64,000 nt of DNA from Engelhardtia mirabilis (GTDB taxonomy: Bacteria; Planctomycetota; UBA1135; GCA-002686595), in contig CP036296.1 of assembly GCA_007751255.1 (NCBI GenBank), forward strand, positions 5,332,001 through 5,396,000, in the 5' to 3' direction. The position numbers and the translations under genes are program-made. Positions 22,521 through 53,757 of the stretch are shown in pieces. Every line of letters starts with the position of its first letter. The stretch's first letter is position 1. Below the pieces are notes generated by a model. The model did not search any database and had not been told where the DNA came from. It saw only the letters and a program-made list of their open reading frames with translations.

Positions 22521-22719
22521 GTGCGGTGGGACGTACCGGAAGTACGGCGGAAGTACGGTGCTGCGATCATTTGTCCCAACTGGGCGTACGGTGCCGCGAT
22601 CATTTGTCCCAACAGCCGCCAGCGATGTTGCGAACCGCAACATCGCTGGCGGCTGTTGGGACAAATGATCGCGGCACCGTACGTCCCAATTGATCGCGGC
22701 ACCGTACGTCCCACCGCAC
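22521..22719. repeat. Nested palindrome, 48-bp perfect core arms, AAC loop (family B)
   Basis: Core arms 22585-22632 and 22636-22683 are exact reverse complements. Each side carries a further imperfect copy of the unit (GATCATTTGTCCCAAC on the left at about 22565-22580; GATCGCGGCACCGTACG on the right), and the outermost 16 bases 22521-22536 and 22704-22719 again match perfectly. It fills the gap between two convergent genes. Confidence 0.95.
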
Positions 22720-22732
22720 GACCAGTACGCCC

Positions 22733-23917
22733 CTACAAGTTCCCCAACCGGATCGCACCGGTCGGGCAGTTCCTGGCGCAGGCGTGGTCGCGGGTGCACT
22801 CGTAGTTGGAGCGCTTCCTGACCGTCGCCTTCTCGCCGCGGGCCCAGAAGGCGTCGGTCTCGCAGACCATCTCGCACAGGCCGCAGCCGATGCAGAGGTC
22901 GCGCTCCACGCGCACCGAGACGTAGTCGCGCGGCGTGCTCGGGCAGGCGGTGCCCTCGGGTAGATCGAGCGAGACCAGGTCACGCGTCGCCGCGTGGGAC
23001 GTGAGCGTCTTGATCGTCTCCTCCTCGCCGAGCTTGACGACCGAGTGCACGTCGTCGAAGTCGAAGCGCGAAAGGTGGCCGATCTTGGGCTGCACGAGGG
23101 CCACCTTGTAGTCCACGTGCATGTGGAGGTTCTGCTCGGCCACGACCTCCTCCGCGATCTCGAAGGCGCGGAACAGCGTCGAGACGGCGCGGCTCTTGTA
23201 GTTGGGCGTCTTCATCGTGGCCTTGACCGTCAGGTCCACCGCGATGATCACGTCGGGCGCGAGGGTGCGCGCAAAGCGCAGGGGGACGGGGTCGACGATG
23301 CCGCCGTCCATGTAGTTGAACTCGCCGTCGTTGAAGGGCTCGAAGATGCCGGGCAGGGCGCAGGAGGAGTACACCGCGTCCACCAGCGAGACCTCGGTGA
23401 AGCCGGGGCTGCCCCAGAACACGCTGCCGCCGGTCTCGAGCCGCACGGCGTTGCAGAAGTACGGCACGCCGAGCTGCTCGAAGCCGCCCTCGGGCAGGAT
23501 CTCGCGCAGCCGCTCCCGGAAGGTGTCGCCGCGGTACATGCTCGGCGCGCGCATGCCCTTGAGCAGGAACTTCACGACGTTGAGCCGGAAGTAGTCCTCC
23601 TTCTTGATGCCCTCGACCAGCTTCTCCATGCGCTCGACCGAGTAGTTGGCCGCACCCATGGCTCCGATCAGCGAGCCGATCGAGGTCCCGACGATCGCGT
23701 CGACCTGGATCCCGAGGGTCCGTAGGGCCTTGAAGACCCCGATGTGGGCCATGCCACGCATGCCGCCACCGCCCAGGACCAGGACGACCCGAGGCCGGCG
23801 GCCGTCGCGGGGCGCGGCGGCGTCGACGGTGGATTGGGCCGGGGCGGCGGGCGAAGCGGTTACGGAGTCCGAGCCTTCGGGCGACGGGGTATCAGCGGTG
23901 TCTTGCGGTCGCAGCAT
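22733..23917 (-). CDS. Patatin-like phospholipase fused to a C-terminal ferredoxin domain
   Basis: A 394-residue protein from the ATG at 23917; a longer frame upstream has no features. Residues about 40-320 are a patatin domain: oxyanion loop GGGGMRGMAHIG (49-60), nucleophile GTSIG (Ser 79) and DGG with Asp 204, so the Ser-Asp dyad is complete. The C-terminus has CIGCGLCEMVC (Cys 342, 345, 348, 352) and CTRDHACARNCPTGAI (Cys 374, 380, 384), a bacterial ferredoxin arrangement in which the second cluster motif is irregular. Lipid hydrolysis coupled to an electron-transfer module is unusual. It is divergent from the beta-oxidation genes, which may hint at fatty-acid release, but that is inference. 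Confidence 0.85.
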   Translation of the reverse strand: MLRPQDTADTPSPEGSDSVTASPAAPAQSTVDAAAPRDGRRPRVVLVLGGGGMRGMAHIGVFKALRTLGIQVDAIVGTSIGSLIGAMGAANYSVERMEKLVEGIKKEDYFRLNVVKFLLKGMRAPSMYRGDTFRERLREILPEGGFEQLGVPYFCNAVRLETGGSVFWGSPGFTEVSLVDAVYSSCALPGIFEPFNDGEFNYMDGGIVDPVPLRFARTLAPDVIIAVDLTVKATMKTPNYKSRAVSTLFRAFEIAEEVVAEQNLHMHVDYKVALVQPKIGHLSRFDFDDVHSVVKLGEEETIKTLTSHAATRDLVSLDLPEGTACPSTPRDYVSVRVERDLCIGCGLCEMVCETDAFWARGEKATVRKRSNYECTRDHACARNCPTGAIRLGNL

Positions 23918-24182
23918 CGAGGTGGGGAGCCGTCGGGCGCGGCCCCGCCGAAGTCCCTTCGGGTCGGTTGTCGGCGCGGCCTGTGGGCGTTGGGGCCAGT
24001 CGACCCGATTCCGGGACGCGAGGTCGATCAATCGTCGGTCAGGTTCGATGGAAAGAGTCGCACCGGTGGGTTCCAATCCGAAGCGTAGGTTTCGTTCCGA
24101 GTTCGATCGCCCGCGCGCCGGGCCCTGCGCCCCTCGGACAGCCCCCACCCCGCCGCGTCCCAGCCCGGAGCCCCATCACACC

Positions 24183-25499
24183 GTGGTCGCCTGCTCCCCG
24201 TCCCGCCGCATCGTCATCGCCGCCGGTCTGCGCCTGCCCCAGGCTCGAGCCGGAGGTGCATTCGCCAAGGAGGACGCCGGGCACTTAGGTGCCCGCGCCG
24301 CCCGCGAACTCCTGGCCCGCACCGCCATCCCCGGCGACCAGCTCGACGAGGTCATCGTCGGCTGCGTCGGGCCGCCCCACGACCAGGCCAACGTGGCGCG
24401 GGTGATCGCCCTGCGCGCCGGTGTGCCCCGGGGCGTGCCCGCGTACACCGTGGGCCGTAACTGCGCCAGCGGCATGCAGGCGGTGACCTCGGCCGTGACC
24501 CGCATCGAGGCCGGCATCGGCGACCTCTACCTGTGCGTCGGCGTCGAGGTGATGAGCGGCTACCCGCTGATCTTCAACCAGGCCGCGACCGACTTCTTCG
24601 CGCGCCTGGCCGGGGCGCGGACGTCGATGGCCAAGCTGGCCGCGATGGCCTCCTTCCGGCCCAAGATGCTCAGCCCCCGCATCGCGCTGATGGAGGGCCT
24701 GACGGACCCGACCAACGGGTTGATCATGGGCAAGACCGCCGAGAACCTCGCGCGCGACTTCGGCATCGGCCGCGAGGAGGCCGACCGCTACGCCGTGCGC
24801 AGCCACAAGCGTGCGGCCGCCGCCCGGGACAGCGGTCGCATGGCGCGCGAAATCGTGCCCCACCTGGGGCTGGGCTCGCGGCCGGGCAAGCTGGCCCTGA
24901 CCGCCGACGACGGCACGCGCGACGACCAGAGCTTGGAGGCTCTGGGACGTCTGCGACCCTACTTCGAGAAGCCTGACGGCGTGGTTACCGTGGGCAACGC
25001 GTGCGGCATCACCGACGGCGCGACGGCTCTGGTCATCACCACCGAAGAGCGCGCACAGGAGCTGGGCCTCGAGCCCCTGGCCGTGATCCGCGGCTTCGCC
25101 TGGTCCGGCTGCGACCCTTCCCGCATGGGTCTGGGCCCGGTCCACGCCACCTCGCAACTGCTCGAGCGCACCGGCGTCAGCGTCGGCGACCTGGGCGCGG
25201 TGGAGATCAACGAGGCCTTCGCGGTGCAGGTCCTGGCCTGCGAGAAGGCCTTCGCCAGCCGCGAGTTCGCGGCCAAGCACCTGGGCCGCAGCGAGGCCCT
25301 GGGCGAGCTCGATCCGCGCCTTCTGAACCCCAACGGCGGCGCCATCGCCATCGGCCATCCGGTCGGTGCGACGGGTGCGCGGCTCTTGTTGACCTCGGCC
25401 CACGAACTGCACGTGCGGCACTGCGAGCTGACCCTCGCGACCCTCTGCATCGGCGGTGGCCAAGGCGGCGCCGTCCTCCTCGAGCGGCCCTCCGCCTGA
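24183..25499 (+). CDS. Acetyl-CoA acyltransferase (thiolase)
   Basis: A 438-residue thiolase, close to FadI in length, starting at the GTG at 24183. The acyl-accepting Cys sits in NCASGMQAV (about residue 98), INEAFAVQV carries the conserved NEAF, and NPNGGAIAIGHPVGATGAR and CIGGGQGGAV supply the catalytic His and second Cys. It cleaves 3-ketoacyl-CoA with CoA to release acetyl-CoA in the last step of beta-oxidation. The partner FadB/J-like gene follows 21 bases later, so the two form an operon and probably a complex. It is divergent from the patatin gene across a 265-base region that should hold both promoters. Confidence 0.93.
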   Translation: MVACSPSRRIVIAAGLRLPQARAGGAFAKEDAGHLGARAARELLARTAIPGDQLDEVIVGCVGPPHDQANVARVIALRAGVPRGVPAYTVGRNCASGMQAVTSAVTRIEAGIGDLYLCVGVEVMSGYPLIFNQAATDFFARLAGARTSMAKLAAMASFRPKMLSPRIALMEGLTDPTNGLIMGKTAENLARDFGIGREEADRYAVRSHKRAAAARDSGRMAREIVPHLGLGSRPGKLALTADDGTRDDQSLEALGRLRPYFEKPDGVVTVGNACGITDGATALVITTEERAQELGLEPLAVIRGFAWSGCDPSRMGLGPVHATSQLLERTGVSVGDLGAVEINEAFAVQVLACEKAFASREFAAKHLGRSEALGELDPRLLNPNGGAIAIGHPVGATGARLLLTSAHELHVRHCELTLATLCIGGGQGGAVLLERPSA

Positions 25500-25520
25500 C
25501 CCCGCGACCACGATCAGACG

Positions 25521-27749
25521 ATGCCCAGCCACACGATCGCGATCGACATCGACAACCTCCCCTGCCCCGCGGGAGCGCCCGAGCCCGGCTCGTGCGTGCG
25601 CGTGGAGCGCGAGGAGGACGGCGCCCTGGTGCGCCTGCGCCTGGATCCGCCCCACCGCGCCAACCCCGTCTTCGACGCGCCCCTTCTGCGTGACCTGGCG
25701 CGGGCCCTGGGCGACGTGGAGCGCGACCCCGCCGTGCGCGGACTGATCGTCTGCGGCCGCGAGCCCTTGGTGTTCTGCTACGGCGCCGACATCGACTCCA
25801 TCTCGGAGCTCGAGTCGGTGGAGGAAGCCACGCGCATCGGCCGCGCGGGGCAGGAGATCTTCCAGCGCCTGCATCGCCTCTCGCGCAGCGGCGGCGGGCG
25901 CGTCACGACCGTGGCCGCGGTCGGCGGGCCGGTGCCCGGCGGCGCCTGCGAGGTCAGCCTGGCCTGCGACTACATCGTGCTGGCCGACGACCCAAGATCG
26001 CGCATCGGCCTGCCCGAGGTGATGCTCGGCATCCTGCCCGGTTGGGGCGGCTGCCAGCGCCTACCGCGGCGGCTCGGTGTGCCCAAGGCGTTGGGCGCGA
26101 TCCTGACCGGCAAGCTCTACGGCGCGCGCCAGGCCAAGAAGCTCGGTCTGGTCGATCGACTGGCCCACCCGGTCTACCTCGATCGCATCGCGGCCGACGT
26201 GGCCACTGGACGCGAGCGCTTGCGGCGCCCGGAGCGTGGCTATTGGACCTGGCTGATCGACCGCAACCCGGCGGCCCTGGCGGTGATCAAGTCCCAGGCG
26301 CGCAAGGGCGTGATGGAGCAGACCAAGGGGCACTATCCGGCGCCCCTGCGCGCCCTCGAGATCGCGGCGGACGCGGTGCGCTCGCCCTTGCAGGAGGGCC
26401 TGCAGCGCGAGGCCGCGGCCCTGGGTCAGCTCGCCCTGAGTCCCCAGTCGCGGGCCCTGGTTCGCATCTTCCGTACCGGCGAGGCGGTCAAGCGCCGCGC
26501 GGCGGGCGCTGACGGTGAGAAGCCGGCTCGCTTCACCCGCGCGGCCGTGCTGGGCGCGGGGATCATGGGCGGCGGCATCGCCAGCCTGTTGGCCGAGAAG
26601 CGCATTCCCACGCGGCTCAAGGACCTGGCCCAACACCAACTCGACGAGGCCCAGAGTGCCCACGAGCAGCGCATCGCCAAGAAGCGCAAGCGCCGCAGCC
26701 TCGAGGCCTACCAGGCCGACGCCGCCATCGATCGCCTCGAGCTGACGCGCGAGGACCTGGGCTTCGCCTCCTGCGACTTCCTGATCGAGGCCATCGCCGA
26801 ACGCCTGGACGTCAAGCGCGCGGTGCTCGGGCAGTTCGCCGAGTTCGTCGGCCCCGACACGGTCATCGCGACCAACACCTCGTCGCTCTCGGTCGACGCC
26901 ATCGCCGACGGCCTGCCGCACCCCGAGCGGGTGATCGGCATGCACTTCTTCAACCCGGTGGCCAAGATGCCGCTGGTCGAGGTGATCCGCGGGGCCGCGA
27001 CCAGTGACGCGGTGGTGCGCCGCGTGGTGCAGCTCGCCATCGACCTGGGCAAGACCCCGGTGGTCTGCGCCGACGCGCCGGGCTTCGTGGTCAACCGCCT
27101 GCTGGCGCCTTACCTCGACGAGGCCATGCGCCTGTTCGAGAGCGGCAGCGCCCCCGCCGAGCTGGATCGCCTGGCCCTGGGCTTCGGCCTGCCGATGGGC
27201 CCGTTCACCCTCTTGGACGAAGTCGGCCTCGACATCGGCGCCCACACCGTGGCGTCGCTCGAGGCAGCGTTTGGCGAGCGCATGGCGCCCTCGAAGGTGC
27301 TCGAGCCCCTGGTCGCGGCGGGGCACCTGGGCAAGAAGTCCGGGCGCGGCATCTTCCTGTACGGCAAGGGCGAGGACGGCGACGAGCTGAACCCGGCCCT
27401 GCGCCGTCCGGCCTCCGCGCCGGCGGTGTCCTCACTCTCGAGCGAGGATCGCGTGGACCGCATGGTCCTGCCGATGGTCAACGAGGCCGCGCGGATCCTG
27501 GCCGAAGGCGTGGTCGAGAGCGCCGCCGAGTTGGACCTGGCCACCGTCTACGGCATGGGCTTCGCGCCCTTCCGCGGCGGGGTGTTGGCCTACGCCGACG
27601 CCCGCGGCCTGGCCAACGTGGTCGAGCGGCTGCGGGAGCTGGCGGCTTCGCCCGAGGTGTCCAAGCGCGAGGGCGGCCGGGCGCGTTTCGAGCCCTGCGA
27701 GCCGCTGGTCGAGCTGGCGGCCTTGGGCGGGACCTTCTACGGGTCCTGA
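25521..27749 (+). CDS. fadJ: Bifunctional enoyl-CoA hydratase / 3-hydroxyacyl-CoA dehydrogenase
   Basis: A 742-residue FadB/FadJ-type protein. The N-terminal crotonase domain has GADIDSISEL, the oxyanion segment PVPGGACEVSLACDY and IGLPEVMLGILPGWGG, so both catalytic Glu residues are present. The dehydrogenase part starts with AAVLGAGIMGGGIA (Rossmann motif, about residue 345), has the catalytic His in GMHFFNPVAKMP and ends with two HCDH C-terminal domains. It hydrates trans-2-enoyl-CoA and oxidises the 3-hydroxyacyl-CoA with NAD. Whether it is closer to FadB or FadJ cannot be decided by eye. A family A palindrome lies 11 bases after the stop. Confidence 0.92.
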   Translation: MPSHTIAIDIDNLPCPAGAPEPGSCVRVEREEDGALVRLRLDPPHRANPVFDAPLLRDLARALGDVERDPAVRGLIVCGREPLVFCYGADIDSISELESVEEATRIGRAGQEIFQRLHRLSRSGGGRVTTVAAVGGPVPGGACEVSLACDYIVLADDPRSRIGLPEVMLGILPGWGGCQRLPRRLGVPKALGAILTGKLYGARQAKKLGLVDRLAHPVYLDRIAADVATGRERLRRPERGYWTWLIDRNPAALAVIKSQARKGVMEQTKGHYPAPLRALEIAADAVRSPLQEGLQREAAALGQLALSPQSRALVRIFRTGEAVKRRAAGADGEKPARFTRAAVLGAGIMGGGIASLLAEKRIPTRLKDLAQHQLDEAQSAHEQRIAKKRKRRSLEAYQADAAIDRLELTREDLGFASCDFLIEAIAERLDVKRAVLGQFAEFVGPDTVIATNTSSLSVDAIADGLPHPERVIGMHFFNPVAKMPLVEVIRGAATSDAVVRRVVQLAIDLGKTPVVCADAPGFVVNRLLAPYLDEAMRLFESGSAPAELDRLALGFGLPMGPFTLLDEVGLDIGAHTVASLEAAFGERMAPSKVLEPLVAAGHLGKKSGRGIFLYGKGEDGDELNPALRRPASAPAVSSLSSEDRVDRMVLPMVNEAARILAEGVVESAAELDLATVYGMGFAPFRGGVLAYADARGLANVVERLRELAASPEVSKREGGRARFEPCEPLVELAALGGTFYGS

Positions 27750-27760
27750 GCCCGCGGGCC

Positions 27761-27892
27761 GCGGTGTAGCCGTTCGTACGGTGCCAGGACGAAACCGCCG
27801 CCTAACCGACCTCGACCAGCCGCCGTTGGCGGCTGGTCGAGGTCGGTTAGGCGGCAGTTTTGTGCCTGGCACCGTACGAACGGCTACACCGC
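27761..27892. repeat. Near-perfect 64/65-bp inverted repeat with GTT loop (palindrome family A)
   Basis: Arms 27761-27824 and 27828-27892 match except for one single-base gap and two mismatches. The core GTTCGTACGGTGCCAGG and CCGCCGCCTA is shared with the element at 19024, but the innermost 20 bases and outermost 10 bases differ from that copy and remain self-complementary. It lies between fadJ and tkt, which read in the same direction. Confidence 0.95.
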
Positions 27893-27925
27893 ATGAATCG
27901 GGCGTGAGCGCGGTGGCGGGTCGGC

Positions 27926-27932
27926 GTATCCT
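27926..27932 (+). promoter_or_regulatory. Candidate -10 box GTATCCT upstream of transketolase
   Basis: GTATCCT lies 36 bases before the ATG at 27969 and just after a palindrome. The identical heptamer lies 43 and 49 bases before the genes at 30343 and 50162. Confidence 0.4.
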
Positions 27933-27968
27933 CCGACCTCCCCCTCCCCCCGCGCCCGGACCCGAGCG

Positions 27969-29987
<2,019 letters not shown>

Positions 29988-29995
29988 GCGGGGAT

Positions 29996-30128
29996 CTGGG
30001 CGTACGGTTGGGCGTACGGTGGCGGGACCATCTGGCCCAACGGCCGCCAACGGCGTTGCGATTCGCAACGCCGTTGGCGGCCGTTGGGCCAGATGGTCCC
30101 GCCACCGTACGCCCAACCGTACGCCCAG
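29996..30128. repeat. Perfect 65-bp inverted repeat with ATT loop (palindrome family B)
   Basis: Arms 29996-30060 and 30064-30128 are exact reverse complements over 65 bases. The outer part of each arm contains GGGCGTACGGT twice. A further partial half-copy (CCACCGTACGCCCA) follows at about 30129-30143. It starts nine bases after the transketolase stop. The remaining 200 bases to the next gene hold a GTATCCT box and nothing else recognisable. Confidence 0.97.
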
Positions 30129-30292
30129 CCACCGTACGCCCAGATCGTCCCGCCACCCACCCCCGCACGAGGCTCTCGATCCTCCAGGCTCGCGGCCATC
30201 CTGCCGATGGTCCACGTCTCAGGGCCAACTCCGGGGGGGCGCCGCGCGTAGGGCGACGGTTCCCCCGCCGACGACCCGGGCGCCGCTGCCGG

Positions 30293-30299
30293 GTATCCT
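30293..30299 (+). promoter_or_regulatory. Candidate -10 box GTATCCT upstream of the membrane/TPR gene
   Basis: GTATCCT lies 43 bases before the ATG at 30343, identical to the boxes at 27926 and 50106. No clear -35 element is seen. Confidence 0.4.
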
Positions 30300-30342
30300 C
30301 TGCGCCCCAACCCGGCCCCCGCCCCCCCTCCCCATCAGCCCC

Positions 30343-33300
30343 ATGACCGCCAACGCCCCCGCCGGCGCCGCCCCCAAGGAGGGCTCGAACCCCCTCGAGC
30401 TGGCCCTGGTCGCGCTCCTCGCGATCGCCTGCCTCCTGACGCCCTACCTGTTCTCGTCGCCCACGACCACGGGCGGCAGCGTGGGCAACGAACTGGTCTT
30501 CGACGGCCGCGAGCTCCTGACCCAGCACGAGGTCCTGAGCGCGATCCCCGAGGAGCCCGGGCGCCTGTTCGAGACGCTGACGACCTCCTGGTGGGGCGAT
30601 GCCTACGCCGAGCAGAAGCTCTATCGCCCCGCGTCCAGCTTCGTCCTGGGCCTGGGTGGTGTGGTCTCGGGTGAACGCTACGACCCGGCCAATCCGGGCT
30701 CGGCGGCGGTTCCGTACAAGCTCTTCGCGGTCAGCCTGAAGGTCATCTGCGCGCTGTTGGTGGTCGAGTTGGGGGCGCTGCTGCTCGGCTCCCGACGTCG
30801 CGGATTCATCGCTGGCCTACTCTTCGCGACGCTGCCCGTGCACGGGGAGGCGATCTTCGACGTGGCCGGCACGGCGGAGCTCTTGTGCGCCGCCTTCTCC
30901 CTGGCGGCGTGGACCGCGTGGTTGAAAGCCGGCGACCGGCCGTTCGAGAAGCCCTTGGCATTGGGCGCGAGCCTGCTGCTGCTGTTCGGCGCGATCCACG
31001 CCAAGGAGAGCGCCTACGCCCTGCCGCTCTTGTTCTTCCTCGGCGACATCGGTCGCGTGCGCGAGGGCGGCTTCGGAGCGGGGGTCAAGCACGCCCTCTC
31101 CAAGCTGCCGGCCCTGGCGGCCTGCGCCGTGGTGATCGGAGTCTCCCTGGGCCTGCGGATGGCGGTGCTGGGCTCCATCGCGCCCGCTGCCGGCAGCCTT
31201 TCGCCGATCGACAACCCGCTGCTCGACACCGACCCGCTGACCCGCGCCATGAACGCGGTTCGCATCCTCGTCGGTGGTCTCGGCACGGCCGTGGGTCTGA
31301 ACCCCTTCTCGGGCAACTGGGGTTTCAGCGCCGACTACTCGATGAGCCAGATCCCGGTGCTGGGCGCCTTCGCGCCGGCCAACCTGGGCGCGCTGGCGGT
31401 GCTGATCGCGATCCTCGGCGGGTCCGTGCTGCTGTTCAAGAAGTGCCGCACGCGAGCGTCCTTGGTGCTGTGCTACTTCGGCGCGCTGCTGATCGTGTCG
31501 AACCTGTTCGTGCCGATCGGGACGATCTTCGCCGAGCGCCTGCTGTTCTTCCCCACCGCGATCCTGGCCCTGTTCCTCGCGCCGTTCCTCGCCGGCCTGG
31601 GCTCCATCGGTGTGATCGTGGCCGTGGTCATCGCCCTGGGCAACGGCTACTGGACCTACAACCGCGCCGACGTCTGGCACGACAACGCCAACCTGTGGCG
31701 CGACACGGCGAACAAGACCTCTCCTGACTCCGCGCGGGCGCAGTTCAACCACGGCGTCGCCCTGGCTCGGGAGCAGCTCTATCCCTTGGCGGAGTCGAGC
31801 TTCGAGAAGGCGCTCGAGATCGCGCCCGACTTCGACCTGGCCCGCATCCAGCAGGCGGCGGCGCTGATGGCGTCCTTCCGCACCGAGGAGGCGCTGGTGC
31901 CCCTGCGCGCCGTGGTCATCAACCAAGTGGTCGCGGACGACTTCAAGTACGAGCGCGACCCGGTCGTCGGCCTGCTCAACGTCGACCTCTTGCTGTTCCA
32001 GATCACGCAGATCGACGCCATGGACGCGGGCGGCGATCCCGAGCGTCACCTGGCGTGGCTCGATGGCCTGATCGAGGAGGGCTACGAGAGCCCCTTCGCG
32101 CACCTCTACCGCGCGGAGACCCTCAGCAAGCTGGGACGCAACGCCGAGGCCGAGGCGGCCTTCCGTCGCTCGCTCGAGATCGAGCCGACCCCGGCGGCCG
32201 TGCGCGGCTTCGGCAGCTTCCTGCGGATCCGCGGGCGCAACGAAGAGGCCCTGGCCCTGTACCAGTCCGAGATCGGTCGACTGGGCAGCGAGAGCACCGA
32301 CGCCAACGACAAGGCGGCGTCGATCGAGTTCAAGCTGCAGGAGGCCGACCTCGAGTACCTGCGCGACCCGGCCCGGGCGAACCAGTTGGTCTCGGCTCTG
32401 ATCGAGGCCGGCGGGATGACGCCCGACCAACTGTCGCGCGCCCTGATCCTGCGAGCCCAGACGCGCCTGGACCTGGTCCCCGCCTCGGACAGCCTGGCCG
32501 CGGCCACCGCGGTGGCCGACAGCGCCCGTGACCTGCAGAAGGCCCTGGGCACCTACCAAGGCCAGTCCGAGCAGTCCTACATCGCCCTCTACATGCTGGT
32601 CGACCTGTTGATGCAGCAGGGTCGCGTGGGCATGGCCGAGGCCACGATTCTCGAGCTGGTGGCCTTCCGCCGCGCGCCGGTGCTGCACGGCCGCCTGGGC
32701 GAGCTGTATGCCAACACCGGCAACCACGACAAGGCCGCCGAGCAGTTCGAGCTCTCCACCTCGGGCCTGGCCGACGAGACCGGCGCGCCCTTGGATCCGG
32801 GCATCTACGTGCGCACGCGCATGCTCCAGCTCCACAACCTCGCCGCCCTTGGAGGTCGCGAGGCGGAGATCGCCGAGATCATCGGCGCCGAGCGCGCGCG
32901 CGCCGATGCCGCAGCGGCCTCGATCGACGCCTACTGGTCCGCGGCGACCGGCGACTGGTCGGCCCTGGAGGCCGCCATCATCGACCTGCGCGACCGGGTC
33001 CCGGGACTCAGCGTCCAGGCGACCATCGGCCAGCTCGAGGACTACCGGCAAGTCGCCCAGGCGCTCGCGGTCTCCGACCTCGACCTAGGGTCGCTAACCC
33101 GCCAGGCCCAGCTCGCCCTGGAGCTCTACAACTACCCGCGGGCCAAGAGCGCCATCGAGCGCGCCTTGGACCTGACCCCCGACAGCGACACCGACGGACG
33201 AGCCTTCCGCACGTCGATCCTGGCCCAGGTGCTCGAGCGCACCGGCAACCCGGCCGGAGCGCTCGAGGCACTCCAAGCCGTCGCCGCGTTGGAAGGTGTG

Positions 33301-36914: not shown

Positions 36915-36971
36915 TGGCGTTCGGTACGGTGCCAGGCAGCGGACAGGTGCCTGGCACGGTGCCGAACGCCA
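36915..36971. repeat. Short palindrome with GTGCCAGGCA/TGCCTGGCAC arms
   Basis: Arms 36915-36938 and 36948-36971 pair over 24 bases with two mismatches around a nine-base loop. The arm shares GGTACGGTGCCAGGCA with family A. It lies between divergent genes, so it cannot be a terminator for either of them. Confidence 0.85.
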
Positions 36972-45842: not shown

Positions 45843-45898
45843 TGCGTCGACCCTCTGCGGAGGCGTGACGGCGCGCGGGCTTGCGCGCCGTCCGCCGC

Positions 45899-46417
45899 TC
45901 ACGCCTCTTCGGCCGGCGCCTTGATCGAGACCAGCTTGGCACCACCCTCGACCGCTTGGCCGGCCTCCACGAAGATCGCCTCGACCGTGCCCGCGATGGG
46001 CGACTTGATCTCGTTCTGCATCTTCATGGCCTCGAGGATCAGCATCGGCTGGTCCTCCTCGACCTCGGCACCGACCTCGACCAGCAGCGTGACGACCACG
46101 CCGGGCATGACCGCCTTGACCACGCCGCCCTTGCCACCGCGGGCGCGGGCGGCGGCGTTGGCGGCGCGTTCGCGCTCGTCCTCGATCTCGAAGGCGTAGC
46201 GCGAGCCGGCGATGCAGACGGCGCCGTCGTGGGTGTCGCCCTCGATCGAGACGCCGTAGGCCCTGCGGTCGACGACCACCGCGAACTGACCCAGGCCGTC
46301 GACGTCGGCCACGGACAGGTCCATGGACGCGCCGTCGACGGAGATCTCGAGCTGCCCCAGGCGCTCGGTCAGCTCGACCTCGTGGTCCTTGCCGTTGACG
46401 GTGACGAAGTACTTCAC
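45899..46417 (-). CDS. Biotin carboxyl carrier subunit of an acyl-CoA carboxylase
   Basis: A 172-residue protein. The C-terminal 70 residues are a biotinyl domain with LILEAMKMQNEI, where the Lys of A-M-K-M carries biotin, and SPIAGTV follows. The N-terminal 90 residues resemble the BT linker domain of propionyl-CoA carboxylase alpha chains (AFEIEDERE near its end) rather than AccB. It starts four bases inside the biotin carboxylase stop (ATGA-type overlap). It shuttles carboxy-biotin between the carboxylase at 46414 and the transferase at 47957 and is probably a split form of a PccA-like alpha chain. Confidence 0.9.
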   Translation of the reverse strand: MKYFVTVNGKDHEVELTERLGQLEISVDGASMDLSVADVDGLGQFAVVVDRRAYGVSIEGDTHDGAVCIAGSRYAFEIEDERERAANAAARARGGKGGVVKAVMPGVVVTLLVEVGAEVEEDQPMLILEAMKMQNEIKSPIAGTVEAIFVEAGQAVEGGAKLVSIKAPAEEA

Positions 46418-47943
46418 TGGTTGCCTCCGGGCTCAGCGCCGGGCGAGGAGCTGGGCAGCGGGTAGCGGGTGTGTTGGATGCGGGCGCGGTTGGTCCAGGC
46501 CTCGCGGCGGCCGGCGGTCGGGGCCAGGGCGCTGCGGCGGGCGAGCTGCCAGCGATGCACCGTGGCCACCGCGGCGGCCACACCCGACAGGCCCAGCACG
46601 TCCTCCGACATGTCCAGGCTCTCCAGGAAGTGGGTGTCGTAGTCGCCGCTGCGGAACTTGGCCTCGCTCAAGACCCGCAGCGCGGCGGGCGCGCCGGTGG
46701 AGACGCCGCCGACGTTGAGCTCCTGCAGGGCGCGGGTCATGCGCGCGATCGCGGAGGCCCGGTCGGGACCCCAGACGATCAGCTTGGCCAGCATCGGGTC
46801 GTAGTTCAGACCGACCTCCATGCCCCGGTACAGGGCCGAGTCGATCCGCACCCACGGCCCGCCGGGCAGGCGCAGGTTGGAGATCGTGCCCGTCGACGGC
46901 AGGAAGCCGGCGACCGGGTCCTCGGCGTTGATCCGCACCTCGATCGACCAGCCGTGCATCGAGATGGCCGACTGGTCGTAGCCCAGGGGTTCGCCGCTGG
47001 CCACGCGCAGCTGCTCGCGCACCAGGTCCACGCCCGTGACCATCTCGGTCACCGGGTGCTCCACCTGCAGGCGCGTGTTCATCTCGAGGAAGAAGAACTC
47101 GCCCTTCGAATAGAGGAACTCGACCGTGCCGGCGCCCTGGTAGCCCACCGCGCGGCCGGCCTGGAGCGCGGCCTCGCCCATCTGCTCGCGCAGCTCGGGC
47201 GTGATCACCGGCGAGGGGCACTCCTCCACCAGCTTCTGGTGGCGGCGCTGGATCGAGCACTCGCGCTCGCCGAAGTGCACGCCGTTGCCGTGGGCGTCGA
47301 ACATGACCTGGATCTCCACGTGGCGCGGGTTGTCCAGGTAGCGCTCGGGGTACATGCGACCGTCGCCGAAGGCCGCCTGGGCCTCGGCGGAGGCCTGGGT
47401 GAAGGCCGAGGCCATCTCCGACTCCTCGCGCACGATGCGGATGCCCTTGCCCCCGCCGCCGGCGGAGGCCTTGAGGCAGATCGGGTAACCGATGTCCTTG
47501 GCGGCCTCGACCGCCGCGTTGGCGTCGGCCACCGGCTCGGCCAGGCCGGGCACGATCGGCACCCCGGCGGCGCGCATCAGTTGGCGGCTGCCGATTTTGT
47601 CGCCCATGCCGCGGATCGCGTCCGGCGGCGGACCGACCCAGGTCAGACCGGCCGCGATCACGCGCTCGGCGAAGCCCGCGTTCTCGGCCAGGAAGCCGTA
47701 GCCCGGGTGCACCGCATCGGCGCCGGTGGCCTCCGCGGCCGCCAGGACCTTATCCACGTCGAGGTAGGACTGGGCCGGGGTCGAGCCACCCAGGGGATAG
47801 GCCAGCTCGGCGAAGCGCGTGTGCAGGGCGCTGCGGTCGGGATCGGAGTAGATCGCGACCGACTCGATGCCCATCTCGCGCGCGGTGCGAATGACGCGCA
47901 GCGCGATCTCGCCGCGGTTGGCGATCAGGAGTCGTTTGATCAT
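46414..47943 (-). CDS. Biotin carboxylase subunit of an acyl-CoA carboxylase
   Basis: A 509-residue protein. IANRGEIALRVIRTAREMGI is the biotin carboxylase N-terminus, ASAGGGGKGIRIV the ATP-grasp glycine loop and FLEMNTRLQVEHPVTEMVTG the catalytic ATP/biotin block. The length is longer than AccC by about 60 residues, with a C-terminal Arg-rich tail. The enzyme carboxylates biotin on the carrier subunit using ATP and bicarbonate. With the beta chain at 47957 and the epimerase it is best read as part of a propionyl-CoA carboxylase. GGAG lies before the ATG at 47943. Confidence 0.93.
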   Translation of the reverse strand: MIKRLLIANRGEIALRVIRTAREMGIESVAIYSDPDRSALHTRFAELAYPLGGSTPAQSYLDVDKVLAAAEATGADAVHPGYGFLAENAGFAERVIAAGLTWVGPPPDAIRGMGDKIGSRQLMRAAGVPIVPGLAEPVADANAAVEAAKDIGYPICLKASAGGGGKGIRIVREESEMASAFTQASAEAQAAFGDGRMYPERYLDNPRHVEIQVMFDAHGNGVHFGERECSIQRRHQKLVEECPSPVITPELREQMGEAALQAGRAVGYQGAGTVEFLYSKGEFFFLEMNTRLQVEHPVTEMVTGVDLVREQLRVASGEPLGYDQSAISMHGWSIEVRINAEDPVAGFLPSTGTISNLRLPGGPWVRIDSALYRGMEVGLNYDPMLAKLIVWGPDRASAIARMTRALQELNVGGVSTGAPAALRVLSEAKFRSGDYDTHFLESLDMSEDVLGLSGVAAAVATVHRWQLARRSALAPTAGRREAWTNRARIQHTRYPLPSSSPGAEPGGNQ

Positions 47944-47956
47944 CGTGCTCTCCGGA

Positions 47957-49507
47957 TCACAAGGGGATATTGCCGTGCTTGCGCGTGGGGCGATGCTCGT
48001 GCTTCGAGCGCAACAGCTCCAACGAACGGATCAGCATCGGCCGCGTGCGGTGGGCCTCGATCACGTCGTCCACGAAGCCCCGCGCGGCAGCCTTGTAGGG
48101 GTTGTTGAAGGTCTCCTCGTACTCGGCGGCCTTCTTCTTCTCCATCGCCACCGGGTCGTCGGCGGCCAGGATCTCGCGGCGGTGGATGATCTTCGCGGCG
48201 CCGGCGGCGCCCATCACGGCGATCATCGAGCCGGGCCAGGCCAGGTTGATGTCGGCGCGGATGTGCTTGCTGGCCATCACGTCGTAGGCGCCGCCGTAGG
48301 CCTTGCGGGTGATCACGGTCAGCTTGGGCACGGTCGCCTCACAGTAGGCGTAGAGCAGCTTGGCCCCGTGCAGGATGATCCCGTCGTGCTCCTGGGCGGT
48401 GCCGGGCAGGAACCCGGGCACGTCCTCGAAGGTCACCACGGGGATGTTGAACGAGTCGCAGAAGCGGATGAAGCGCGCGCCCTTGATCGAGGCGTGGATG
48501 TCGAGACACCCCGCCAGCACCGCCGGCTGGTTGGCGACGACGCCGACCACGTGTCCGCCCAGGCGCGCGAAGCCGGTCAGGATGTTGCGCGCGTAGCCGT
48601 CGAGCACCGGGAACCACGTCTCGCGGTCGACGATCAGCTCGATCACGCGGTTCATGTCGTAGGGCTTGGTGTCGTCGCGCGGCACCAGCTCGTCCAGGGC
48701 GTGCTCCTCGCGGTCGGCCGGGTCGTCGGTCGGCACGAAGGGCGGGCCCTCGGCGTTGTTGAGCGGCAGGTACGACAACAGGCGCCGCACGAGCTGCATG
48801 CAGCTCTTGTCGTCGGAGCTGGTGAAGTGCGCCACGCCGCTCTTGGTGTGGTGCACCTCGGCGCCGCCGAGCTCCTCGCTGGTGACCTCCTCGTGGGTCA
48901 CCGTCTTCACGACGTCGGGCCCGGTGATATGCATGAACGAGGTGTTCTCGACCATGCAGATGAAGTCGGTGATCGCCGGGCTGTAGACCGCGCCGCCCGC
49001 GCAGGGGCCCAGGATGGCCGAGATCTGCGGCACGACCCCGGAGGCCTGGGTGTTGCGCCAGAAGATCTCCGCGTAGCCGCCGAGGCTGCTGACGCCCTCC
49101 TGGATGCGCGCGCCGCCCGAATCGTTCAGGCCGATCACGGGCACGCCCACCTTCAGGGCCATGTCCATGATCTTGCAGATCTTCTCGGCGTGGGTCTCCG
49201 AGAGGGAGCCGCCGAAGACCGTGAAGTCCTGGCTGTAGAGGTAGACCGGGCGGCCGTCGATCAGCGCGTGGCCGGTGACCACGCCGTCGCCGAGGACCTG
49301 CTGCTCCTGCATGCCGAAGTTGGAGCAGCGGTGGGTCACGAAGCGATCGATCTCGACGAAGGAGCCCTCGTCGACCAGGAAGTCGATGCGCTCGCGCGCC
49401 GTCAACTTGCCCTTCTTGTGTTGGGCTTCGATGCGCTGCTCGCCGCCGCCGACGAGGGTCGACTCGCGCATACGGCGCAGTCGGTCCAGGGGGGTCTCAG
49501 GACTCAA
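47957..49507 (-). CDS. pccB: Acyl-CoA carboxylase beta chain (propionyl-CoA carboxylase-like)
   Basis: A 516-residue carboxyltransferase. [28 protein letters not shown] and [20 protein letters not shown] match the N-terminal domain; [20 protein letters not shown] and [14 protein letters not shown] match the C-terminal domain of PccB. It transfers carboxyl from biotin to propionyl-CoA, giving (S)-methylmalonyl-CoA. I place the start at a TTG at 49507, which overlaps the epimerase stop as TTGA and gives SPETPLDRL; an ATG 42 bases further in is possible. A very long upstream extension in the same frame is non-coding antisense sequence. The biotin carboxylase gene follows 13 bases later. Confidence 0.93.
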
Positions 49508-50022
49508 TGGGACTCTCCTTGGGGGAGCTGGCCTTGGGGGAGCTGGCCTTGGGGAAGCTGGCCTTGGGGAAGCTGGACGAGCTCGGTCAGCACGCCGCCG
49601 GTGCTCTTGGGGTGGATGAAGGCGATGGTCGTGTGGTGGGCGCCGGGGCGCGGCTCGCGGTCGATCATCCGCAGGCCCGCCGCCTCCAGGGACGCGATCG
49701 CGGCCGCCACGTCGTCGACGCGGTAGGCCACGTGGTGCAGCCCGCCCCCGCGCTTGGCCAGGAAGCCGGTCACGGGCGAGTCGTCGCTGGCCGGCTCGAC
49801 CAGCTCGATGCGCTGGCCCCCGGCGTGGAGCACGAGCACGTTGACCTTCTGGTCGGCGACGAACTCGGGCTCGCCGGCGTCCAGGCCCAGGGCGGTCTCG
49901 TAGACCTTCCGGGCTTCCGCGATGCTCTCGACGACGATGGCGATGTGATGGAGATCGCGGACGACCCCGGCCGGCAGGTGGCCAGGGGACGCCGCGTCGC
50001 TGGGACGGGTCGGGGGGGACAT
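49504..50022 (-). CDS. mce: Methylmalonyl-CoA epimerase with a repeated C-terminal tail
   Basis: A 172-residue protein. Two VOC-type halves carry HHIAIVVES (metal-binding His), [11 protein letters not shown] with a catalytic Glu, GLHHVAYRV and GVLTELVQ with another ligand. The family is usually about 135-150 residues; here the tail adds three LPQGQ units and LPQGESH. The enzyme interconverts (S)- and (R)-methylmalonyl-CoA between the carboxylase and a mutase that is not in this window. It heads the operon. A TAGAAT box lies nine bases before the ATG at 50022, suggesting a leaderless message. Confidence 0.9.
49515..49580. repeat. 15-base tandem repeat in the epimerase 3' end
   Basis: On the plus strand, GGGAGCTGGCCTT-type units recur about four times, encoding LPQGQ on the minus strand. 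The first two units contain GGGGG and the last two GGGAA. The repeat is in frame and ends near the stop codon. Confidence 0.9.
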
Positions 50023-50031
50023 GGGCTGCGG

Positions 50032-50037
50032 ATTCTA
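50032..50037 (-). promoter_or_regulatory. Candidate -10 box TAGAAT for the epimerase/carboxylase operon
   Basis: TAGAAT on the minus strand lies nine bases before the ATG at 50022. It is the best match to TAGANT in the window. Confidence 0.5.
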
Positions 50038-50105
50038 ACGGGCCGAGGGCCGCGGCTCCCGACTCGACATGGGTACCGGAGGGCGAATAGAGCTCGGGTG
50101 GCGTC

Positions 50106-50112
50106 GTATCCT
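50106..50112 (+). promoter_or_regulatory. Candidate -10 box GTATCCT
   Basis: GTATCCT lies 49 bases before the ATG at 50162, identical to the boxes at 27926 and 30293. Confidence 0.4.
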
Positions 50113-50161
50113 GCCCGGCGTCGATCCCGGCGCCTCTCCGTCGCCGAGCCCCTGGCACCCC

Positions 50162-53100
50162 ATGAAGAATCTCGGCCTGATCCTCGCCGCGCTCGCGCTC
50201 CTCGCAGGGGGCCTCGTCGCATACCTGCTGGTCGGCCGCACGGCTCCGGAAGAGGACGCGGGGATCGGCGGCGCCGCGACTGCGATGGATCGGCCTGTCG
50301 ACGCGACACCGACCGCTCCGGCGAGCGTCCCCCTCGCGTCGAGCGGTGGTCGATCGAGTGGCCGCGAGGAGCTGGCCGCGGACCCCGCCGCGCCTGCGGG
50401 TTCCATCGCGGCCGCGCAGCGCGCCCCCGAGTCCGCCGGCGGCTCCGTCCGCGGGCGCGTGGTGGACCCTGTCGGCGCCGGGTTGGCGGGCATGCTCGTG
50501 GCCGCCTACGCCCCCGATCTCGAGGCTCGCGTCGTCCTCGGCTCGATCGTCGCCCACGTGGATGCAGCGCGTAGCGGTCTGGACACCGACGAAGAGAAGC
50601 TGCCCCTCGCCGCCGTGATGGCGGCGGACGACGGCAGCTTCGAGCTGACGCTCCCCAGGGGTCGCCGGGCGGTGCAGCTCGCGGCGGTCGGACCGCGGCA
50701 CTTCACGGCGCTCCCGCTGGAGGCCCTGGCCGACGACAGTCCGATCGAGCTGCGCTGCAAGCTCGGCGCGCGCGTCGTGGGCACGATCATCCCGCCCGAT
50801 GGCCACGAGCTTGCGAACCTGGCCGGGATCGCGATCTCCATGGACCAGTCCCTGGCGGACGGCCTCGAGTTCACGCAGGGAGCCTCCCCGAGCCGCAAGA
50901 CGGTCACGGACGTGCGCGGCGAGTTCTCCTTCCCCGCGGTTGGGCCCGACACCAGTCGACGGGTCCTGGCCCTGCCCGATTCCCTCGCGAGTGCCTCCGC
51001 CCAAGTGTCCGACATCGAAGCCGGCGAGGTCCGTCAGGTGTTCCTGGAGCTGAGTCTCGGCGCGACCCTGCGGGGCCGGGTGGTCGACGAGTTGGGCCAG
51101 GGCATCGGCGGCGCGCAGGTGACCGCGGCGGGAGACACGGGCCTCGGAGTCCAAGGCAAGGCGCTGCGCGAGGCCGAGTCCGCCGCCGACGGCCAGTTCG
51201 TGCTGGAGCACGTCGCGCCGGTCAAGCTGCGCGTGCGCGCGGAGGCCGAGGGCTTCCTGCCGAGAAGCATCGACCCTGGGCAGCTCCAGAACGGCGACAC
51301 CGTCGGCGGCCTGACCCTGAGCCTGGCTGCCGGCCAGCGCATTCGAGGCGTCGTGCTGCTCCCGGACGGTTCTCCGGCCCCAGGCGCAGAGCTCGTCGCA
51401 CTCATCGACGTCGCCGCGGCCCAGGGCTCCAACCAGATGGACCTGTGGGGCTCGCGCGGATCGGAGACCGAGTCCGATGAGGACGGCACGTTCAGCCTGG
51501 AGGGCCTCAAGGGTCGGGCCTTCGTGATCGACGCGCGCGTCGAGCTCGATGCGGACGACGCGCGCGTCGCCAAGCTCGGCGGGCGGCACTTCTGGGCCCA
51601 CATCGAGGGCTGCAGGCCGTCGGACGACATGGAGCTGCGTCTGCAGGTCGCGTCTGTGCTGTCGGGTCGCGTGGTCGATGCGGCCGCCCGACCGGTGACC
51701 GAGTTCTCGATCGTCGCCGAGCAGCCCAGCTCGTCGCCCCTGGTTCGCAACGGTCCGCCCCAGCGCTTCTGGTTCGAACACGACGACGGCCGCTTCGAGA
51801 TCGCCGAGCTCAGCGACGGACTGTGGTCCCTGCGGGCCTCGGCGCCCGGCTTCGCCATCTCGGAGGCCGTCGAGGTCACGCTGCCTGACTCCGCGGGGGT
51901 GCAGATCAGCCTGGTGGACGGGGTGATCGTGTCCGGCCGGGTGGCGACCCCGCGCGGCGACGGTGTCGGCGGAGCGGTGGTGACCCTCGACCGCAACTGG
52001 ATCGACGCGATCGTTCAGCTCGACTCGCGCCAGGCGACGAGCCTCGAGGACGGCAGTTTCGAGCTGCGCGATCAAGCCCCCGGCGAGCTGGCCCTGGTAG
52101 CCAAGCACCCCGACTGGGCCGACAGCGAGACGATCACCGTCGGGCTGCCGCAGTCCGGACGGCTGGACGGCGTCGAACTGGTCCTGCGCCAGGGCGGACG
52201 GATCACGGGCGTGGTCTACGACGAGGACGGACAGCCCGCCCCCGGGGCCCAGGTCATCTGCCAGAACCCGCAGACCTTCGAACCGATGTTGGCCCCCGCG
52301 GACGACAACGGTCGATTCGGCTTCGGGCCCCTGAAGCCGGGCACCTACCAGGTCGTCAGCATGGGCAACTTGACCGAACTGGCCGAGGGTGGTGGCGATT
52401 CCTCGCCCCTGTCGCTGTTGTCCGACATGAAGGTCGCCATGGTCGACGTCGTCGACGGCGAGACGGTCGAAGTCGAGCTCGGCGTGCCCCCGTCCAACCC
52501 CGTGGAAGTCAGCGGCCGGGTTACATCGGCGGGCGAACCCGTCACCACCGGCGCGATCCAGTTCATCCAGGAGTCCAAGGGCATGGACTCGCTCAAGTTC
52601 GCCGAGATCGGCGCCGACGGCCGCTACGAAGTGACCCTCAACGAGCCAGGCGACTACCTCGTCACCATCCAGCCCCATCGCCAGGGCGGGATGAGTCTGC
52701 GTCAGAACAACATCGAGTACAGAAAGCTGGTGCCGGAAGGGCCGGAGTGCCGCATCGACCTGACCCTGCCGGATTCGTCCATCTCAGGCCGCGTCACCGA
52801 TCAGGACGGCGAGCCCCTGGACGGGGTGATCGTCAACTCGACCCGGCAGGAGGGCGTGATCTACGGCATGGCCTTCGGCGGCGGCTTCTCGACGACGACC
52901 ACCGACGAGGACGGTCGCTACGAGCTGACCCACATGCGCCCCGGCCGCTACCAGGTCACCGCGGGCGGCACCTTCTTCGGAATGCAGCTCAGCAGCGGCC
53001 AGGTGCGCGGTCGGATCAACCGCGCCGACCTGGTGATCGAGGCCGATCAACACCTGGAGGGCATCGACTTCGAGCTCGGGCCCCCGATCACCGTTACCGG

Positions 53101-53629
53101 CACCGTGCGCTCGACCAACGGCGAGCCCGTCGCCGCCGCCACGATCTTCGTGCGCGACGCGGCGGGCAATCCGATCGAGCGCTTCTCCATGATCCTGACC
53201 GACGCCAGCGGGCGCTTCCGCTTCGAGGGCCTGGCACCGGGCGAGTACAGCTTCAGCGCGCGCAACCGCGAGATGGCGTCGATCGAGACCGACCCGGTCG
53301 AGGTCAACGCCGAGAACCCGCCGGTGGTGAACATGGTCGCCGAGGTCGGCACGACCCTGATCGCGCGCATCGAACTCGACGACGAGCCCTCGATCGACGC
53401 CTCGGTACGGGTCTTCGACGAGCGCGAGCACGACGTCTCGGGAATGGTCGGCTACCCCGACCTGATGGCCGCCATCACCGCCGGCTTCGAGTCCGGCGAG
53501 TTCCGCATCGGCCCCCTGGCCCCCGGCAAGTACCGCGTCGAGGCCACGGCCCCGGACGGGCGTTCGAAGTCGAAGGTCGTGGTCCTGGGCGGCAGCGACG
53601 AGCGGCGGGTGCGGATCCGGATCCACTAG
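50162..53629 (+). CDS. Large protein of repeated CarboxypepD_reg-like domains
   Basis: A 1155-residue protein from the ATG at 50162. A membrane anchor ([20 protein letters not shown]) is followed by a low-complexity stretch and then about eight to ten beta-sandwich domains, each with G-x-V/I-x-D-x-x-G-x-P-x-x-G/A and a later D-G-x-F/Y-x-L/F-x-x-L-x-P-G-x-Y pattern (for example [17 protein letters not shown] and [20 protein letters not shown]). These resemble carboxypeptidase regulatory domains, which support surface attachment or binding. No enzymatic domain is seen. It probably sits in the periplasm, held to the inner membrane. A family B palindrome begins 18 bases after the stop. Confidence 0.82.
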
Positions 53630-53646
53630 TGGGACGTGCGGTGGCG

Positions 53647-53757
53647 GCGGGACGTACGGTGGCGGGATCATTTGTCCCAACGGCCGCCGTCGGCGCTGCG
53701 TTCCGCAGCGCCGACGGCGGCCGTTGGGACAAATGATCCCGCCACCGTACGTCCCGC
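53647..53757. repeat. Perfect 54-bp inverted repeat with TTC loop (palindrome family B)
   Basis: Arms 53647-53700 and 53704-53757 are exact reverse complements. The arm contains GACGTACGGTGGCGGG and ATCATTTGTCCCAACGGCCG. It starts 18 bases after one stop and ends three bases before the stop of the convergent RluD-like gene, so it is the whole terminator space for both. Confidence 0.97.

What the first reader, a model, noticed from the sequence alone, without database searches (positions are those of the whole stretch)
22521..53757. Family of perfect intergenic palindromes whose differences are mirrored
Elements at 22521, 29996 and 53647 share a 48-base core beginning CGTACGGTG. Between 29996 and 53647 six core positions differ, and each change is accompanied by the matching change in the opposite arm, so every copy stays a perfect hairpin of 48-65 bp with a 3-base loop. 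Such long perfect palindromes are usually unstable (SbcCD cleaves them), so their maintenance points to selection on structure or to a copying mechanism that rewrites one arm from the other. All three lie at gene ends.
Basis: partly seen in the sequence, partly recalled or inferred. Interest (0 to 1): 0.78.

Follow-up and report, generated by a model that had tools for sequence, protein, structure and literature searches.

The report
Mobile hairpins with self-matching arms
This bacterium carries about a hundred copies of small, probably mobile DNA hairpins, mostly sitting at gene ends, whose two halves stay near-exact mirror copies even as the hairpins change, which suggests that the cell keeps rewriting one half from the other.

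Summary
The three elements belong to one of two families of dispersed palindromes (A and B) in a 6.95-Mb genome, probably of a planctomycete. In 880 kb of it I catalogued 45 paired A, 31 paired B and 17 single B copies. At the 17 free positions of the conserved A block, all 67 deviations from consensus are mirrored, none one-armed. On a tree A shows 196 mirrored steps against 12 one-armed.

Outside the window a Y1 (HUH) transposase of the TIRYT/RAYT kind lies between two A palindromes. In 7 of 11 relatives' loci the homologous gene is flanked by 24-51-nt inverted repeats with a similar core. The palindromes are best read as non-autonomous, REPIN/MITE-like derivatives. They sit at gene ends, above all between convergent genes.

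Mirroring is best explained by DNA-level copying between adjacent arms. Half of the mirrored steps in the conserved blocks are transversions (24 of 49), which a G-U intermediate cannot explain. The kind is known; the length, near-perfection and link to a type of enzyme reported to lack REPs make it a new variant.

The parts
19024..19162 (.). Family B palindrome, 68-bp perfect arms, 3-nt loop; X + AGGCGTTCGTACGGTGCCAGGCACGAAACCGCCGCCTA + variable inner stem, mirrored
22514..22726 (.). Family A element with uneven outer flanks: core palindrome 22585-22683 (48-bp perfect arms), outer arms 22514-22536/22704-22726 (96% complementary), extra partial unit 22549-22580 on the left
27761..27892 (.). Family B palindrome with two one-armed substitutions and one indel in its core (decaying copy)
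29996..30128 (.). Family A palindrome, 66-bp perfect arms including a mirrored partial outer unit (CTGGGCGTACGGTTGGG)
36915..36971 (.). Small degenerate B-like palindrome (TGGCGTTCGGTACGGTGCCAGG...CCTGGCACGGTGCCGAACGCCA), 24-nt arms at 92%
53630..53646 (+). Degenerate outer family A unit present on the left side only (TGGGACGTGCGGTGGCG)
   Evidence: sequence
53647..53757 (.). Family A palindrome, 54-bp perfect arms, 3-nt loop, between convergent genes ending at 53629 and 53760

Best explanation
The palindromes are non-autonomous mobile elements: REPIN- or MITE-like miniatures made of two inverted end-units of a Y1/HUH transposase element (a TIRYT, 'TIRtron') with a short variable hairpin in place of the gene. 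Family A is the set of an apparently intact transposase, which itself lies between two A palindromes at 4.71 Mb. Family B looks like an older set whose only candidate enzyme found here is a 3' remnant. Copies sit at gene ends, above all between convergent genes, where they may also serve as two-way terminators. Because the arms are only 1-5 nt apart, the strand can fold into a hairpin when it is single-stranded. A change in one arm is then copied to the other by intrastrand template switching or by mismatch repair in the hairpin stem, so the family diversifies in mirrored steps. Shown here: the families, the mirrored changes, the transposase between palindromes, the inverted repeats with related cores around homologous genes in relatives, and the placement. 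Inferred: mobility by this enzyme, the copying mechanism, and termination.
For: Family A conserved block (26 nt, of which 17 lie outside the exact search anchor; 45 elements): 67 mirrored deviations, 0 one-armed; family B gap-free (26 of 31): 18 mirrored, 3 one-armed. Parsimony: A (38 of 45 elements) 196 mirrored against 12 one-armed steps, B (24 of 31) 142 against 20. In the conserved blocks 24 of 49 mirrored steps are transversions. The nearest arm is the own partner for 68 of 76 A arms (7 tied, 1 not) and 50 of 52 B arms (2 tied). Transposase: alignment A1 finds G000:C1:4713652-4714635 at 264 bits; NCBIfam REP_Tyr_transpos 53.9 bits, E 1.7e-14, below its cut-off of 80; motifs THFH and YIDANP. 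It lies between palindromes 4713412-4713566 and 4714672-4714828. Inverted repeats of 24-51 nt flank the homologous gene in 7 of 11 relatives' loci. Those distant repeats differ at 15 of 241 positions against 12 of 1518 in gap-free A arms outside the anchor (p 2.8e-7). Near-identical A copies lie at sites with different flanks, and 5 A neighbours lie under 3 kb apart against 0.85 expected. Context: 46 of 97 convergent and 9 of 97 divergent, against 25 and 49 of 188 background gaps.
Against: No transposition, cleavage or excision was observed. The relatives' repeats used as a comparison come from other genomes and have unknown age. Pfam Y1_Tnp missed the enzyme and scores it 16.7 bits against a cut-off of 23. 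Standing one-armed mismatches lean to transition type in A (11 of 14; 7 of 10 one-armed steps), while mirrored steps do not (17 of 37 in the A block), so simple copying of ordinary mutations does not explain the spectrum fully. The inner stem differs so much between copies (52%) that parts of it may have been replaced wholesale, so parsimony counts there are soft; steps also depend on one tree from short arms, and random reassignment of right arms still gives about 63 (A) and 58 (B) apparent shared steps. The mirrored substitution between sister copies could also have come from a third copy. The link between family B and the remnant at 6466864 rests on proximity only. Around relatives' enzymes, long palindromes were absent from 6 of 6 loci and from 10 of 11 (partly the same genomes).
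Confidence: 0.72

Rival explanations
1. Selection on an RNA hairpin (terminator or mRNA stabiliser) keeps the arms complementary by ordinary two-step compensatory mutation.
For: Placement at gene ends and between convergent genes; REPs are known to sit mostly downstream of coding regions (abstract of PMC3733652, seen).
Against: A terminator stem needs far fewer base pairs (recalled) than the 49-84 of the palindromes without mismatch (37 of 67 with score 40 or more). No one-armed state is seen at 17 positions of 45 A elements, while two-step evolution should leave G-U intermediates. Half of the mirrored steps in the conserved blocks are transversions, which cannot pass through G-U.
Confidence: 0.12
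2. Arm rewriting happens during transposition: the new copy is built from one arm by hairpin-primed synthesis under the transposase, so perfection marks young copies, not upkeep in place.
For: Family A, with an apparently intact enzyme, has fewer arm mismatches than family B (12 of 1518 against 22 of 1077 outside the anchor, p 0.008). I found no single A copies but 17 single B copies.
Against: Sister copies at 343265 and 343959 share a one-armed indel, so that copying step did not rebuild the whole arm. Locus-specific outer flanks are mirrored too, which copying before insertion cannot explain.
Confidence: 0.2
3. For the outer, locus-specific mirrored flanks only: the elements insert at the centre of pre-existing short palindromes or terminator hairpins.
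For: In PMC3733652 (section 7) some REP families lie inside palindromes. One A element sits symmetrically inside B outer sequence (6128623-6128767).
Against: In many copies listed the mirrored flank is flush with the element, with no loop bases left over. No near relative with an empty site was available.
Confidence: 0.35
4. The perfect symmetry is an assembly or polishing artefact.
For: Palindromes are hard to assemble; a palindrome at a contig end in relative G017 (L306) is suspect.
Against: 76 paired copies with a shared core and varying inner parts in a 2-contig assembly; comparable palindromes with other cores in G029 and G004; one-armed differences are present, so symmetry was not imposed.
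Confidence: 0.02

Closest known systems
TIRYT / TIRtron (Y1 transposase flanked by long terminal inverted repeats; PMC3733652; subclass 2.1 of PMC6006769)
   Same: Long class-2 Y1 protein with a C-terminal extension; the C-terminal part of the profile also touches DnaA (E 0.004; the touched gene is DnaA). Gene flanked by inverted repeats in relatives. Repeats dispersed as a family, which PMC3733652 reports for some TIRs, including self-complementary ones.
   Different: Here the flanking repeats are whole near-perfect palindromes of about 155 bp, and the family has 45 or more copies. Their core is CGTACGG rather than the GGGGWSAS motif shared by several TIRs. PMC6006769 reports no REP-like sequences beside subclass 2.1 genes.
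REPIN / BIME (inverted REP doublets moved by RAYT; PMC3116915)
   Same: Two inverted conserved end-units around a variable spacer that folds into a hairpin; high copy number outside genes; singlets as decayed doublets; compensatory changes in the hairpin called common there.
   Different: Arms of roughly 50-85 bp, more than half of them without mismatch outside the tip (37 of 67), and a spacer that is itself a near-perfect stem; no GTAG foot in family A.
Quasi-palindrome correction by template switching (PMC8794818; PMC3820800, abstract start in a listing)
   Same: Arm identity extended or restored in one event and multibase compensatory changes. In pair 6636369/6639153, aligned by the outer array, the loop reads AAA against TTT, like a spacer inversion.
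   Different: In what I saw it is described for single hairpins and RNA genes; here it would act across a whole dispersed family.
Symmetric indels in very long perfect inverted repeats of Enterococcus faecium plasmids (PMC13155455)
   Same: Changes reported as symmetrical, preserving the inverted repeat.
   Different: Three related plasmids with single large repeats, not a dispersed family.
MITE
   Same: Short, non-autonomous, with inverted ends and an autonomous partner (definition recalled).
   Different: Almost nothing but the inverted ends remains; no target-site duplication was established.

Membership tests
TIRYT / TIRtron | Y1 transposase with HUH motif and class-2 Y motif (Y---NP) | tested here: met
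   THFH and YIDANP in the 339-aa protein; REP_Tyr_transpos 53.9 bits, below the curated cut-off of 80; Pfam Y1_Tnp 16.7 bits, below 23
TIRYT / TIRtron | Gene flanked by terminal inverted repeats | tested here: met
   Own gene between two palindromes 97% alike as an inverted pair; 24-51-nt TIRs in 7 of 11 relatives' loci; of the other 4, 3 were cut short by contig ends and 1 showed none
TIRYT / TIRtron | GGGGWSAS motif in the repeats (shared by several, not all) | tested here: not met
   Own units read CGTACGGTG..., relatives [AG]TAC[CG]G[AT]...; not a strict criterion in PMC3733652
TIRYT / TIRtron | Subclass 2.1 by phylogeny, with Bac_DnaA_C / HTH C-terminal domain | tested here: inconclusive
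   No Pfam HTH match in the own protein even at E 10; weak profile match to DnaA; no tree with the published classes was built
REPIN with RAYT | Inverted doublets of a conserved unit forming a hairpin | tested here: met
   76 paired copies
REPIN with RAYT | GT[AG]G tetranucleotide at the hairpin foot | tested here: not met
   Family A lacks it in the unit; family B has GTAG at the left outer foot in 14 of 31 pairs
REPIN with RAYT | Cognate transposase gene flanked by the same repeats | tested here: met
   Family A only; for family B only a remnant nearby
REPIN with RAYT | Excision or transposition intermediates | not testable with these tools
   Needs population sequencing or biochemistry
IS200/IS605 (subclass 1.1) | Short TnpA (median 152 aa) with Y---Q motif, high intragenomic copy number | tested here: not met
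   339 aa with YIDANP; one full copy found

The most novel reading that the evidence does not exclude
Symmetry upkeep is part of the element's life cycle: a TIRYT-driven hairpin element in which one arm is the master and the other is rebuilt from it, during transposition or at each replication, so that the family evolves as single-arm genomes written twice, and mirrored locus flanks record how far each rebuilding ran past the element.
Probability: 0.2. Interest if true: 0.85.

Novelty: new variant of a known kind. Interest (0 to 1): 0.62.

Why it matters
Compensatory change is usually read as a sign of selection on RNA structure. Here dozens of dispersed copies, two families, sister pairs and a distant-repeat comparison point to a mutational mechanism that writes both arms at once. 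The system could turn the question of how palindrome arms stay matched into a measurable rate. It also gives a type of Y1 transposase, reported to have no REPs beside it, a candidate set of cognate hairpin elements.

Tried and rejected
No transposase: Pfam Y1_Tnp found none in this genome. That was a false negative; an alignment built from relatives found it. RNA family: no Rfam match in the window at gathering scores. The 16S gene carries the PLA46 probe site exactly, but has 1 mismatch to EUB338, 2 to EUB338-II and 3 to PLA886, so 'planctomycete' is likely, not proven; the probe sequences are recalled. Empty sites: none of the 60 relatives was of the same genus, so the origin of the mirrored flanks stays open. 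Families A and B in relatives: besides the own genome, 8 of 60 had short partial A matches at E up to 0.001 and 1 of 60 a B match at E up to 1e-6. A palindrome scan of samples found comparable ones in G029 (400 kb) and G004 (70 kb) and none in 253 kb of 12 other relatives. Long palindromes beside the enzyme in relatives: none in six loci; one of eleven (G017, at a contig end), possibly an assembly effect. Solved structures: no useful match. Structure prediction of the enzyme was not tried, because its locus came from the fetch from genomes, which the tool's description does not include.

Dropped rows. The pair catalogue needed an exact CGTAC[CG]GTG in both arms, 40-140 bp apart. Six palindromes of score 30 or more in the held sequence are therefore not in it: two A and one B with a mirrored change in the anchor, two B with a one-armed change in the anchor (5304394, 5990653), and one miniature (6862822). 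Of 22 B copies with one anchor, 5 lie in full or partial palindromes, leaving 17 single copies. The filter for these (CCAGGCA) also passed over a few more decayed B-like singles seen. One search listed 100 of 105 A places, so a few A copies may be missing. Gapped elements (7 A, 5 B) were left out of the substitution and tree counts. The B count (20 mirrored, 27 one-armed) included one misaligned gapped element and was replaced by the gap-free count.

Full report
What is in the window. Three family A palindromes (22585-22683, 29996-30128, 53647-53757) and two family B palindromes (19024-19162, 27761-27892) lie between genes, with a small B-like one at 36915-36971.

The genome. The window is G000:C1:5332001-5396000 of a 6,947,277-base genome in 2 contigs, and contig 1 begins with dnaA. 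The core CGTACGGTG occurs 129+121 times against 2+2 for the reversed control. The B pattern occurs 44+39 times and the A pattern 52+53 times, with 0 controls. I held 879,597 bases of it: targeted stretches, a 20 x 20 kb sample and the window. With an exact anchor in both arms there are 76 paired elements, 45 A and 31 B. Another 22 B copies have one anchor; 5 of them lie in full or partial palindromes, 17 are single. The only A unit among anchors outside a listed palindrome (343930) is an outer extra unit next to one. Six further palindromes of score 30 or more missed the anchor rule: three with a mirrored change in the anchor, one miniature, and two B with a one-armed anchor change.

Anatomy. 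An A arm reads TGGGACGTACGGTGSCGSGAYCATTTGTCCCA followed by a variable inner stem of about 20 nt. A B arm reads TAGGCGTTCGTACGGTGCCAGGCACAAAACCGCCGCCTA followed by an inner stem of similar length. Loops are 1 or 3 nt in 43 of 45 A and 26 of 31 B pairs. Of 67 palindromes with score 40 or more, 37 have no mismatch outside the central three positions, with arms of 49-84 bp. Outside the conserved unit the two sides go on matching: the median perfect match outward from CGTACGGTG is 17 nt in A, much of it mirrored partial units, and 13 nt in B, of which about 8 are family sequence and the rest is specific to the locus. Of 22 single-anchor B copies that I listed by hand (a slightly different list), 19 could be measured, and 11 of these have 7 or more matched bases beyond GGCG/CGCC, two of them family sequence. 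At 6128623-6128767 an A element lies symmetrically inside B outer sequence, so some B copies seem to predate A insertions.

Mirroring. In the 26-nt A block, elements differ from each other by 8.3% on average and arms of one element by 0 (45 elements); 67 deviations from consensus are mirrored and 0 are one-armed. The first 9 of the 26 positions were fixed by the search, so the test rests on 17 positions, 765 pairs. These are counts of cells, not events. On a tree of 38 gap-free A elements the block has 37 steps in the left arm, 37 in the right and 37 jointly; over 47 columns there are 196 mirrored and 12 one-armed steps. For 24 B elements the figures are 142 and 20. Random reassignment of right arms leaves about 63 and 58 apparent shared steps. 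Of the 49 mirrored steps in the two conserved blocks, 24 are transversions. One-armed mismatches in A are mostly of transition type (11 of 14), so the two spectra differ, which a plain copying model does not predict. One pair of sister copies, 343265 and 343959, lies in inverted orientation with different outer flanks. It shares a 1-nt indel present in one arm only, yet differs by a substitution present in both arms. The inner stem differs by 52% between A elements, so wholesale replacement there cannot be excluded.

The transposase. Pfam Y1_Tnp gave nothing in this genome. An alignment of four Y1 proteins from relatives found G000:C1:4713652-4714635 with 264 bits. The protein of 339 aa starts at 4713646, and the gene lies between A palindromes at 4713412-4713566 and 4714672-4714828. 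NCBIfam's REP-associated tyrosine transposase model scores 53.9 bits, E 1.7e-14, under its cut-off of 80. A second, partial match at 6466864-6467233 is a 3' remnant about 1.2 kb from a B palindrome. Homologues at E up to 1e-10 occur in 27 of 61 genomes including the own one. In 7 of 11 loci from relatives the gene is flanked by inverted repeats of 24-51 nt; 3 of the other 4 loci were cut short by contig ends. All seven contain [AG]TAC[CG]G[AT]; five contain [AG]TACGG[AT]G[CT]C, and two contain the variants ATACCGAGCC and GTAC[CG]GTACC. This resembles the start of the A and B units. Those repeats, a kilobase apart, mismatch at 15 of 241 positions (from, where BLAST picks similar stretches), against 12 of 1518 in gap-free A arms outside the anchor (p 2.8e-7), though age and genome differ.

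Family A against family B. Arm mismatches outside the anchor are 12 of 1518 in A and 22 of 1077 in B (Fisher p 0.008); 28 of 38 and 13 of 26 gap-free elements are perfect. This fits an active A family and a decaying B family.

Placement. Of 97 placed elements, 46 lie between convergent, 42 between tandem and 9 between divergent genes; background gaps of 60 bp or more in the longer stretches, elements included, are 25, 114 and 49 (the gene caller was my own script). In 80 of 88 cases with a stop facing the element the core is within 60 bp of it. One more element was called inside a gene, perhaps a wrong start call. Of catalogued A pairs 31 of 45 lie in the half of the chromosome around the contig start (p 0.016), of B pairs 17 of 31.

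Tolerance. The best SbcD match is 25.4 bits over positions 28-88, cut-off 77.65, while 13 of 14 control genomes ring and 8 pass the cut-off. A canonical SbcD thus seems absent, which would make long palindromes easier to keep. This is inference.

What is known. I saw passages of PMC3116915, passages and section 7 of PMC3733652, passages and sections 12 and 20 of PMC6006769, the abstract and section 8 of PMC8794818, passages of PMC13155455, one passage of PMC12306157, and the start of the abstract of PMC3820800 in a listing. REPINs already show compensatory changes. TIRs can be self-complementary and form moderately abundant families. Template switching can write both arms at once. PMC6006769 states that no REP-like sequences were found beside subclass 2.1 genes. 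That the present enzyme belongs to 2.1 is my inference from its length, its motifs and the weak match of the profile's C-terminal part to DnaA; Pfam shows no HTH domain in it. None of the titles and abstract starts listed describes perfect palindromes of this length tied to such an enzyme.

Verdict. A real, strong pattern; a new variant of a known kind (TIRYT/REPIN-like miniature elements), with good evidence that its arms are rewritten from each other at the DNA level.

Noticed in passing
G000:C1:4712782-4716410 (L099): The transposase cassette lies in a local duplication: a neighbouring small gene and its hairpin recur on the other side (409 bp at 92%).
   Followed up: partly
G000:C1:6466864-6467233 (L282): 3' remnant of a second Y1 transposase beside a gene on the other strand that looks like a radical-SAM protein (by eye), about 1.2 kb from a B palindrome.
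   Followed up: partly
L155-L234, MAG CSMAG_2820 (Planctomycetia): Many REP-like units CCCTYGTACGGTGCCAGGCACC...GCAAGGG, some paired; several contigs end at them, as if short-read assembly broke there.
   Followed up: no
G037 (same order), L247: 52 Y1_Tnp matches in one genome; the one locus looked at carries near-perfect or perfect hairpins with GGGGTCAGACCCC.
   Followed up: no
L306 (G017) 2466-2603: Perfect 69-bp-arm palindrome ending at the contig end beside a homologous transposase gene; it may be an assembly effect.
   Followed up: no
G000:C1:5990568-5990697: Tandem array of CGTTCGTACTGTGCC units leading into a B element.
   Followed up: no
window 56948-57000: 24-bp hairpin near gene ends, unrelated in sequence to the two families.
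   Followed up: no
G029 (L115, L118, L122) and G004 (L137): Same-family genomes carry comparable long palindromes with other core sequences (GGTACGGCGTCAGGCAC..., TTGTACGGTGCCAGAGC...).
   Followed up: partly
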